Assembly: GCF_004102725.1 (NCBI RefSeq)
Contig: NZ_LHQS01000002.1
Span: forward strand, 301,984-365,983
Source: Methanoculleus taiwanensis
GTDB taxonomy: Archaea > Halobacteriota > Methanomicrobia > Methanomicrobiales > Methanoculleaceae
Direction: 5' to 3'
Length of the DNA stretch: 64,000 bases
Position 1 is the first letter of the stretch. Each line of letters starts with the position of its first letter. Positions 11,739 to 14,799 of the stretch are shown here, one piece after another. A program made the position numbers and the translations under genes. The notes under the pieces are model-generated. The model was not told the origin of the DNA. It made no database searches and saw only the letters and a program-made list of their open reading frames with translations.

Positions 11739-12863
11739 TCACTGCAGATACTCCAGCACGCGGTCGGGATCGTAGCGGAGACTGATCAGGCGCGTCCGCC
11801 CTCTCCCCTGCCGGTAATGGAGGTTTAACAGCCGCATCGCATCGAACTTCTTGACGATCTCGTAGAACTTGGTGTAGCCGAGCGGCATCGTCTCTTTGAC
11901 GTACCGGTAGACCTCTCCCGCCGTCATCTCCTTTTCCTCGCGGGACATCTCTGCGATCTTCCCGAGGAGCTGCTGCTCTTCGGCCTTCAGCGTCCGGAGC
12001 GAGTAGGCGAGGTGGAGGTACTTCGAGACCTCGTAGGCTCTGCAGATATCGTCCCGCTCGATTGCCCTCCGGGCTTCCTTCTCGGCATTCAGCGCCGCAC
12101 GCTTGATCAGGTCGATCCCGACCCGGAGATCGCCGCTCTTCATCGTCTGTTCGACGATGAGGTCGAGTTCCTCCGCGGGGAGCACACCCGGATAGAGACC
12201 CTGTGCGACCCGTTCTTCGAGGATCGTCCGGACCTCCTCGAGACTGTAGGGCGGGAAGTAGATCTCGGTCGGCTGGAAGACCGACGCCACACGGGCATCC
12301 ACCTCGGTGCGGAGGTCGACGCTCATGTCACTGATGATGGTGATGACGCCTATGCGCGTTCCGGGGTAGGCCTCGTGAGATCGGAGCAGTGCGTAGAGGA
12401 CGCGGTTGATTTCGTTCTCGTAGAGGAGGTAGTTGGCATCGTCGAGCGCTACGACGAGCACCTGCTCCTCTTTCTGGAGTATGCGGCCGATTGCGTCGAA
12501 GACCTGTTTGAAGGAGGTGCCGGATGCGGGGGGGAGGTGGCCGGAGAGTTTTTTGTAGATCTGGGAGAAGATGGCGAATTTGGTATTGTCTATCTGGCAG
12601 TTGACGTAGACCGGCACGAGTTTCTTCGTGGTCTCCTCGATCTCGGCAAAGATCTTCTTGATGCTGGTCGTCTTCCCCGTCCCGGGAAGGCCGCGGCAGA
12701 TGGTGTTGAGCGGCCGTGCACCCCGGAGCCCCGGTTTGACCTGAAACGCGAGTTCACGGAGCTGTGCCTCGCGGTGATTGAACTGCTCGGGGACGTGGTC
12801 GATCTCAAAGACCTCGGGGTCGCGAAAGAGCGTCTCGTCCCACATGAGCAGGTTCTTCTTCAT
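11739..12863 (-). CDS. cdc6: Orc1/Cdc6 replication initiator
   Basis: A 374-residue AAA+ ATPase that recognises origins and loads the MCM helicase. Walker A is GLPGTGKTTSIKK (about residues 59-71), Walker B LVVALDDANYLL with the Asp pair, sensor-type residues follow, and the C-terminal 90 residues form a winged helix (EVYRYVKETMPLGYTKFYEIVKKFDAMRLL). The start at 12863 has GAGGAATT seven bases before it. The gene shares its strand with a zinc-finger protein gene 74 bp upstream, so they may be cotranscribed. Archaeal cdc6 genes often lie beside an origin, but I see no clear set of origin boxes within the adjacent gaps. Confidence 0.95.
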   Translation of the reverse strand: MKKNLLMWDETLFRDPEVFEIDHVPEQFNHREAQLRELAFQVKPGLRGARPLNTICRGLPGTGKTTSIKKIFAEIEETTKKLVPVYVNCQIDNTKFAIFSQIYKKLSGHLPPASGTSFKQVFDAIGRILQKEEQVLVVALDDANYLLYENEINRVLYALLRSHEAYPGTRIGVITIISDMSVDLRTEVDARVASVFQPTEIYFPPYSLEEVRTILEERVAQGLYPGVLPAEELDLIVEQTMKSGDLRVGIDLIKRAALNAEKEARRAIERDDICRAYEVSKYLHLAYSLRTLKAEEQQLLGKIAEMSREEKEMTAGEVYRYVKETMPLGYTKFYEIVKKFDAMRLLNLHYRQGRGRTRLISLRYDPDRVLEYLQ

Positions 12864-12937
12864 TAGTAATTCCTCTCTACGTCGGAATATATAACCTCCA
12901 GCGTTTTTATTTCCGCACCACACCCGTCAGGTCTGCT

Positions 12938-13552
12938 TCACGGCTGTTCCATGCACTTCTTGCAGAGGGTCTTTCCGGTGAAGAGCTGGGCGAGCTTCGC
13001 CTGCGACTTCGTCACCGGTGCTCCGCAGGTCTCGCACGTTGCTTCAGCCTCTCCGCTTGCGGGCTTGTTCGCCGGTGCGGCAGGTTTTGCTACGGGTTCG
13101 GGCTCGGGCGCCGGCTTTTCCGGTGCCGGTTCTTCCTTCGGTGCCGGCGGTTTCAGGTGCACCGGCGGGTGGGGCTGCTCCGGTGCAGCGGGTATGGCCT
13201 CTTCGATGAGATCTGTCGGGCACTTCTCTGCGGCGACGGGCTGCCGGGTTTCGTCTGCCGGAGGTGCTGGTTTTGCCGCCGCCACGCCCGCCTTTTCGGT
13301 CGGCTTTTGAGCGGTCTTCCCTGCCGTAGGAGGCGTGACCCGGGTCGTGAGGACGCGGCGCCGGTAAGCATCGATCCGCTCAGCGGTAGCCGGATCGCCG
13401 CGGCCGAGGCGGGAGAGGATGCCGTCGAGGAAGGCGACCAGTTCGTCGGCGTCCTCCTGGGTCTTCACGTCCCCCTCGACCTCGAGGCGGAGATTTTCGT
13501 AGTTCTCGAGATTGATGGTTATGCCGATGGTGACTTCCTTCTTATCTGACAT
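12938..13552 (-). CDS. Proline-rich protein with C-terminal Cys4 zinc finger, next to cdc6
   Basis: A 204-residue protein in three parts. Residues 1-65 form a small alpha/beta domain (VTIGITINLENYENLRLEVEG, then a helix with ELVAFLDGILSRLGRG). Residues 70-165 are a low-complexity Pro/Ala/Lys linker, and residues 170-204 a Cys4 zinc finger (CETCGAPV and CKKCMEQP). I do not recognise a named family; the N-terminal domain recurs next to replication genes in related methanogens in my recollection, but that is not proven here. Its position 74 bp before cdc6 on the same strand hints at a role with DNA. The ATG at 13552 lies just after an AT-rich promoter-like stretch (TATATGCC). Confidence 0.7.
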   Translation of the reverse strand: MSDKKEVTIGITINLENYENLRLEVEGDVKTQEDADELVAFLDGILSRLGRGDPATAERIDAYRRRVLTTRVTPPTAGKTAQKPTEKAGVAAAKPAPPADETRQPVAAEKCPTDLIEEAIPAAPEQPHPPVHLKPPAPKEEPAPEKPAPEPEPVAKPAAPANKPASGEAEATCETCGAPVTKSQAKLAQLFTGKTLCKKCMEQP

Positions 13553-13765
13553 ATAACTCAATAAATATTGGATGGCATATATAACAAATCCTCCGCTCGC
13601 CACCGGCGGCCGCGTGTCCGCATTTTCCGGCCTTGCGCTGCCGGTGTGGTGACGGTGGTGGAAGGGTAGTAGCCGGCAGTGTGATCTCAACACTAATCTC
13701 TGATCCCGTGAAATACATCTATGAACGGTTGACCGCCGATCCCTTCCGTGGGGGCGGCGGCCTCG

Positions 13766-13830
13766 TGCGGCAGATGATGACAGTTACCCCCACTGATACA
13801 AGGATGATGATGCAGGGGACTGATGCCGCA
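13766..13830 (+). ncRNA. Box C/D guide sRNA (2'-O-methylation guide)
   Basis: All elements of an archaeal box C/D sRNA are present in order. Terminal stem TGCGGCA (13766-13772) pairs perfectly with TGCCGCA (13824-13830). Box C ATGATGA (13774-13780) and box D CTGA (13820-13823) form a standard K-turn with a three-base bulge GAT next to that stem. Guide 1 is CAGTTACCCCCA (13781-13792, 12 nt), followed by box D' CTGA (13793-13796), a four-base spacer, a slightly degenerate box C' AGGATGA (13801-13807), and guide 2 TGATGCAGGGGA (13808-13819, 12 nt). Both guides have the canonical 12 nt. L7Ae, Nop5 and fibrillarin would assemble on it. Guide 1 can pair over ten bases with GGGGGUAACU, which I recall from helix 69 of archaeal 23S rRNA. 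Guide 2 target is not identified. It lies alone in the gap between two minus-strand genes. Confidence 0.92.
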
Positions 13831-13977
13831 ATGTTCTGCCCACCACTGTCTGTTCTTCTACACTCATCTGTACTGCCGGATGGCAACATCTCTCCTCTCA
13901 TAAATGCCCCGGCTATCGCTTCTCTCTTGCACACAGCCCTGTCGGAGCCGAGGCGAAACACCCGGATGGTATCGGGA

Positions 13978-14799
13978 TTATAGGTCCGGTGATCCGGAGG
14001 CTACTCCAGCGCTATCCCGAGCACTGCAGGAGATCCCCATCCGAACCGACCGCTCCCCCTCATCCAGATCCGCCTGCTGTAGTCTCACCTCGCACCCGAG
14101 CCCCTCCGCCATCATGCACATGATCAGGCTGCAGACCGAGCAGGGGCAGAGGGCACAGGACTCCGGGGATGCTTCCCGACGGGAGATGCAGCCCGAGAAG
14201 AACCGGTAGTTCTGCAGGGTAACAGTGACCACATCACCCTCCCTCTGTACCTCCACCTGATCGGCGACCGAGAGAAGATCCTCGCAGACCTCCCGGACCG
14301 CCCCCGCCAGCAGAGCATACTCGGTGGGGAGGACGAGATTATTGTCACGCTTCAGGTCTTCGAGCATGGAGCCCGCCAGGGGCTCGATCAGAATCCCGCT
14401 GCCCCCGTTGCATAAAGCAGATCCGTCCGCACCTCCTGTGTACGACCCGGAGGAGCGTGCGGTCGGAATGAACTGCATGACTGCCCCGTCCTCGCTCTTC
14501 GGCGGCAGAAAGACCGCCGTCCCGCGCCCGCCCCGGTCATGGATGATCCCGCCGAGGGCGGCGATGCCCTGCAGGGAGAACTGGCCGGCGACCGTCGCTC
14601 GCACGGGGTCGTCTCCCCCGAGTGCGAAGAGAAACGCTCCGCCGATGAAGGTGGTCGTGCTCAGCATGAGAAGGAGCGAGTGCAGAGATCCCCATCGGTC
14701 GGTAAGCAGGGCTGCAAGGAGGAGCAGGACAGCAAAGCCGATGAGGAGGTATGCGCCGGTCCTGTAGTTTTTATACCCGTCCATCTTCATTCCGTTCAC
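13978..14799 (-). CDS. Membrane protein with Cys-rich cytoplasmic tail, unknown function
   Basis: A 273-residue protein with two transmembrane helices near the N-terminus (YLLIGFAVLLLLAALLT and LLLMLSTTTFIGGAFLFAL, about residues 18-60) followed by a soluble domain. In that domain the segment CALCPCSVCSLIMCMMAEGLGCEV holds many cysteines, suggestive of metal or cluster binding, though no family is recognised. A smaller membrane protein gene lies 34 bp upstream on the same strand, and the two are likely cotranscribed. Confidence 0.65.
   Translation of the reverse strand: MNGMKMDGYKNYRTGAYLLIGFAVLLLLAALLTDRWGSLHSLLLMLSTTTFIGGAFLFALGGDDPVRATVAGQFSLQGIAALGGIIHDRGGRGTAVFLPPKSEDGAVMQFIPTARSSGSYTGGADGSALCNGGSGILIEPLAGSMLEDLKRDNNLVLPTEYALLAGAVREVCEDLLSVADQVEVQREGDVVTVTLQNYRFFSGCISRREASPESCALCPCSVCSLIMCMMAEGLGCEVRLQQADLDEGERSVRMGISCSARDSAGVASGSPDL

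What the first reader, a model, noticed from the sequence alone, without database searches (positions are those of the whole stretch)
13766..13830. Previously unannotated box C/D guide sRNA with two 12-nt guides
Perfect 7-bp terminal stem, box C ATGATGA, D' CTGA, C' AGGATGA and D CTGA in the canonical order and spacing; both guides are exactly 12 nt. The box C/D K-turn at the stem is textbook, with the three-base bulge GAT. Guide 1 matches GGGGGUAACU, which I recall in helix 69 of archaeal 23S rRNA; by the box D' plus five rule the modified base would be a G in the 5' strand of that helix. The structure is seen directly; the target is inference from memory.
Basis: partly seen in the sequence, partly recalled or inferred. 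Interest (0 to 1): 0.82.

Follow-up and report, generated by a model that had tools for sequence, protein, structure and literature searches.

The report
Archaeal C/D guide RNA for helix 69
This is a real small guide RNA of a methane-producing archaeon that almost certainly directs a methyl group onto one known base (G1909, helix 69) of the large ribosomal RNA; the RNA class, the modified base and a guide for it were already described in archaea, so it is a new member of a known kind.

Summary
Window 13766-13830 (+) is a box C/D sRNA: 7-bp terminal stem, K-turn with GAU bulge, box C AUGAUGA, D' CUGA, C', D CUGA. It is conserved in 48 of 61 related genomes while flanking DNA is not. The stem has compensatory changes at 4 of 7 pairs. 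A covariance model finds it in 214 of 392 genomes of the phylum. The D' guide (AGUUACCCCC) pairs with 10 consecutive bases of 23S helix 69, GGGGGUAACU, identical in all relatives checked. The +5 rule gives G1909 (E. coli numbering). That is a mapped 2'-O-methyl-G in Haloarcula marismortui (Gm1950), for which a C/D guide with homologues in 25 archaeal genomes was proposed in 2008 (PMC2584109).

One detail fails. Box C' is not AGGATGA with a 12-nt second guide. Comparison places C' at ATGATGA, 13804-13810, and leaves a D guide of only 9 nt, without an rRNA or tRNA target above chance. Across orders the D' guide stays constant while the D guide is replaced. In 44 of 114 loci the sRNA lies within 1.5 kb of orc1/cdc6, on the opposite strand. 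Verdict: new member of a known kind, function well predicted, expression not shown.

The parts
13766..13772 (+). 5' arm of the terminal stem, TGCGGCA
   Evidence: Pairs fully with 13824-13830; 4 of 7 pairs show changes on both sides among 43 homologues, 90.7% of cells paired
13773..13775 (+). three-base K-turn bulge G-A-U (last two bases are the first two of box C)
   Evidence: Sequence; K-turn rule from established knowledge of L7Ae K-turns
13774..13780 (+). box C ATGATGA
   Evidence: Invariant in all 43 aligned homologues
13781..13792 (+). D' guide CAGTTACCCCCA; 10 bases (13782-13791) complementary to 23S helix 69 GGGGGUAACU, predicted to direct 2'-O-methylation of G1909 (E. coli numbering)
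   Evidence: AGTTACCCCC invariant; 10-bp match in 12 of 12 relatives' 23S
13793..13796 (+). box D' CTGA
   Evidence: Invariant
13797..13803 (+). D'-C' spacer TACAAGG, length variable among relatives (about 3 to over 20 nt)
   Evidence: Register fixed by RTGATGA in relatives
13811..13819 (+). 9-nt D guide TGCAGGGGA, target unknown
   Evidence: GCAGGG core mostly conserved within Methanomicrobiales; no rRNA/tRNA match above chance
13820..13823 (+). box D CTGA
   Evidence: Invariant
13824..13830 (+). 3' arm of the terminal stem, TGCCGCA

Best explanation
The locus encodes a roughly 65-nt archaeal box C/D guide sRNA. The terminal stem and boxes C/D form a K-turn, and boxes C'/D' form the internal K-loop; both bind L7Ae and recruit Nop5 and fibrillarin. 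The D' guide pairs with GGGGGUAACU in the 5' strand and loop of 23S helix 69. The fifth base upstream of box D' (C13788) faces the fourth G, so fibrillarin methylates the 2'-OH of G1909 (E. coli numbering, equal to H. marismortui Gm1950), next to intersubunit bridge B2a and the tRNAs. The D side carries a short 9-nt guide without a recognisable target; it probably serves mainly as the second half of the RNP scaffold. Shown here: anatomy, conservation, covariation, complementarity and presence of fibrillarin and Nop genes. Inferred: transcription, RNP assembly and methylation.
For: Found in 48 of 61 relatives with matches confined to the sRNA. Boxes C, D' and D and guide AGTTACCCCC invariant in 43 sequences. 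Stem covariation 0.230 vs 0.095 in shuffles, 0 of 500 as high, and above all slid controls. Covariance model: 82.7 bits in the window (the window's own sequence is in the model), 214 of 392 genomes across the phylum. Ten contiguous Watson-Crick pairs to helix 69 in 12 of 12 relatives, meeting the published criterion of at least 9 bp covering the +5 base. Target base is a mapped Gm in H. marismortui, with a C/D guide proposed in 25 archaeal genomes. Weak matches to archaeal C/D Rfam families snoPyro_CD, sR1, sR55 at these coordinates. Fibrillarin and Nop genes present and adjacent in the genome.
Against: No expression data. 23S rRNA is missing from the window's own assembly, so the target was read from relatives, including one of the same genus. 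By shuffling alone, a 10-bp match to the rRNA operon has p about 0.02; the claim rests on conservation and on the known Gm site. Some lineages lack the sRNA yet keep the target sequence. RNA folding energy alone is not unusual (z 0.11), as expected for a protein-stabilised K-turn RNA.
Confidence: 0.93

Rival explanations
1. It is a double-guide sRNA: the D guide also methylates a second RNA, with 16S rRNA GUCCCUGCU (about C1382, E. coli numbering) the best rRNA candidate.
For: The GCAGGG core is conserved in most Methanomicrobiales; this 16S site scores highest on average over 12 genomes.
Against: Only about 6 to 8 bp, not above shuffled guides; several genomes have guide changes (GCAAGGGG, GCACGGGG, GCTGGGG, GCGTGG) that break it; the spacer is 9 nt, shorter than usual.
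Confidence: 0.12
2. One reading: C' is AGGATGA (13801-13807) and the D guide is the full 12 nt TGATGCAGGGGA.
For: Sequence permits it in G000 and G001; 12 nt is the usual archaeal guide length.
Against: C' would carry a mismatch; nearly all other relatives offer no such register; a perfect C' lies 3 nt downstream; the 12-nt guide has no better target.
Confidence: 0.05
3. A small protein is encoded here (ORF 13633-13983 +) and the resemblance to a C/D sRNA is incidental.
For: An open frame crosses the site, and the same-genus relative also has one.
Against: Spacer lengths among relatives vary by 1, 2 and 4 nt, breaking any frame; bases, boxes and stem pairs are conserved instead.
Confidence: 0.01

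Closest known systems
Haloferax volcanii / 25-archaeal-genome C/D sRNA candidate for 23S Gm1950 (Gm1909 E. coli numbering), Grosjean et al. 2008, PMC2584109
   Same: Same class and same predicted target base; the identical guide AGTTACCCCC at D' also turns up in Haloquadratum walsbyi, Methanolobus, Methanohalophilus and Methanocaldococcus.
   Different: Their sequence file could not be read here, so whether it already lists Methanomicrobiales is unknown. The D guide is different in each order.
Pyrococcus sR41 (proposed in PMC2584109 to guide the same position)
   Same: C/D sRNA proposed for the G1950-equivalent.
   Different: The Rfam sR41 model matches this locus only at E = 10, 10 bits, so family-level sequence identity is not shown.
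Yeast snR63 (25S Am2256, helix 69)
   Same: C/D RNA-guided methylation within helix 69.
   Different: Another base: with yeast psi2258 = E. coli 1915, Am2256 corresponds to A1913; the 1909 equivalent in yeast is A2252, listed without modification.

Membership tests
Archaeal box C/D guide sRNA | Boxes C (RUGAUGA), D' (CUGA), C' (RUGAUGA-like), D (CUGA) in order | tested here: met
Archaeal box C/D guide sRNA | Terminal stem with K-turn geometry, maintained by compensatory change | tested here: met
Archaeal box C/D guide sRNA | Length about 50-70 nt | tested here: met
   65 nt; range in PMC7994747
Archaeal box C/D guide sRNA | At least one guide with 9 or more consecutive pairs to rRNA covering the +5 base | tested here: met
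   10 pairs to helix 69; criterion from PMC4644070
Archaeal box C/D guide sRNA | Second guide with a target (common but not required; sRNAs with one empty guide are known) | tested here: inconclusive
   No rRNA or tRNA match above chance; other RNAs not scanned
Archaeal box C/D guide sRNA | Core RNP proteins in the genome | tested here: met
   Fibrillarin and Nop; L7Ae not tested
Archaeal box C/D guide sRNA | Transcribed, bound by L7Ae/Nop5/fibrillarin, directs 2'-O-methylation | not testable with these tools
   Needs RNA-seq, pull-down, RiboMeth-seq
Rfam archaeal C/D families (snoPyro_CD, sR1, sR55) | Score at or above the gathering cut-off | tested here: not met
   29.3 of 45, 27.3 of 45, 23.3 of 35 bits

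The most novel reading that the evidence does not exclude
A half-fixed guide RNA: the D' guide for G1909 has been held constant over several archaeal orders while the D half is repeatedly replaced, and in Methanomicrobiales it is shortened to 9 nt, so that it works as a non-methylating or chaperone arm, or on a fast-changing non-rRNA target.
Probability: 0.3. Interest if true: 0.4.

Novelty: new member of a known kind. Interest (0 to 1): 0.25.

Why it matters
It gives an unannotated guide RNA gene a precise predicted target, an experimentally known 2'-O-methyl-G in helix 69 at the subunit interface, and a covariance model that picks up the gene across the phylum. The lineages that keep the target but lack this sRNA offer a natural test of whether Gm1909 is dispensable or made another way.

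Tried and rejected
Second-guide targets: scanned 16S+23S of relatives and 42 distinct tRNA sequences of the same genome with 9- and 12-nt versions; nothing above shuffled guides. tRNA-Cys C32 looked attractive (CTGCA) but pairs over only 5 bp. Yeast Am2256/snR63 as the equivalent site: rejected on numbering. A conserved promoter: AT-rich patches lie upstream in many relatives but there is no clear aligned TATA peak. Coding explanation: rejected by indels. Origin-like repeats near orc1/cdc6: none, and no sharp GC-skew turn there. RNA minimum free energy: uninformative. A 23S search by Rfam model over handles failed on the server and was replaced by a helix 69 pattern.

Full report
WHAT IS THERE. 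Window 13766-13830 (+) reads TGCGGCA G ATGATGA CAGTTACCCCCA CTGA TACAAGG ATGATGA TGCAGGGGA CTGA TGCCGCA. The only hit of a combined C/D pattern in the window, either strand, is this one, and 150 random windows of the same dinucleotide make-up gave none. Rfam at gathering thresholds reports nothing here, but at relaxed thresholds the best hits are archaeal C/D families snoPyro_CD, sR1 and sR55, aligned box for box.

CONSERVATION. A 111-base query found homologues in 48 of 61 related genomes (the window's own included), with matches mostly limited to about 60-80 bases, so flanking DNA has diverged. In 43 distinct sequences boxes C, D' and D and AGTTACCCCC are invariant. The terminal stem has changes on both sides at 4 of 7 pairs; the covariation score is 0.230 against 0.095 for shuffles (0 of 500 as high) and 0.014-0.152 for slid controls. 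A covariance model (R1) scores the window at 82.7 bits and finds matches in 214 of 392 genomes of the phylum. Named records with the same guide include Methanoculleus, Methanoregula, Methanocorpusculum, Methanocalculus, Methanomicrobium, Methanolobus, Methanohalophilus, Haloquadratum walsbyi, Methanocaldococcus and Methanothermococcus.

CORRECTION TO THE ANATOMY. In relatives, C' is RTGATGA and ends 9 (rarely 10) nt before box D. In the window the trinucleotide repeat GATGATGATG allows two readings; comparison selects ATGATGA at 13804-13810. The D guide is then 9 nt, TGCAGGGGA, not 12.

TARGET OF THE D' GUIDE. 23S rRNA is missing from this assembly, so relatives were used. GGGGGUAACU, in helix 69 (...GGCGGGGGUAACUAUGACCCUCUUAAGG...), is identical in all 12. 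The guide pairs with it over 10 contiguous Watson-Crick pairs in every genome. Position 5 from box D' (C13788) pairs with the fourth G, G1909 in E. coli numbering. By shuffling the guide, a match this long has p about 0.02, so chance is not excluded by length alone. What settles it is invariance of the guide across orders plus prior data: in H. marismortui 23S exactly this base is Gm1950 (1909), and Grosjean et al. 2008 proposed a C/D guide with homologues in 25 archaeal genomes, and Pyrococcus sR41 for the same site (PMC2584109). Helix 69 is a methylation hotspot in archaea (PMC4644070). It is not the yeast Am2256 position.

THE D GUIDE. GCAGGG is conserved in most Methanomicrobiales, but no target in 16S, 23S or 42 distinct tRNA sequences exceeds chance. 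The best average rRNA site, 16S GUCCCUGCU, is broken in several genomes. Methanosarcinaceae and Methanococcales carry other D guides with the same D' guide. So one half of the RNA is held and the other replaced; whether the short D side methylates anything is open.

MACHINERY AND CONTEXT. Fibrillarin (G000:C2:191211-191834) and Nop (G000:C2:190813-191226) lie next to each other in the genome. The gene lies divergently upstream of a conserved protein and orc1/cdc6; among 114 loci bearing the guide, 44 have cdc6 within 1.5 kb, all on the opposite strand.

ABSENCES. Family f3 and several genera of f5 have no recognisable copy; those whose helix 69 could be read keep it unchanged. Either the modification is lost there or it is made by a diverged guide or another enzyme.

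VERDICT. An ordinary but genuine, well-predicted guide RNA gene: new member of a known kind. Not shown: expression, RNP binding, methylation.

Noticed in passing
window 11739-13552 and loci: The sRNA gene keeps its place divergent from orc1/cdc6 (11739-12863 -) and a conserved protein (12938-13552 -): cdc6 is within 1.5 kb in 44 of 114 loci, always on the opposite strand.
   Followed up: partly
L045-L048: In family f2 the D'-C' spacer is longer (for example AAACGCCTTTTAGGAGGCTTTG) and can form a stem by eye, which would turn the internal K-loop into a K-turn.
   Followed up: no
genomes G038, G043, G048 (f3), G040, G055, G060, G339, G356 (f5): No recognisable copy of the sRNA; helix 69 target is unchanged wherever it was found in these genomes.
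   Followed up: partly
L120, L121, L126, L154, L178 (Methanococcales): Same D' guide but a 12-nt D guide such as AATCGGCACTGT, whose target was not identified.
   Followed up: no
window genome G000: The assembly lacks 23S rRNA although it is rated 99.98% complete.
   Followed up: yes
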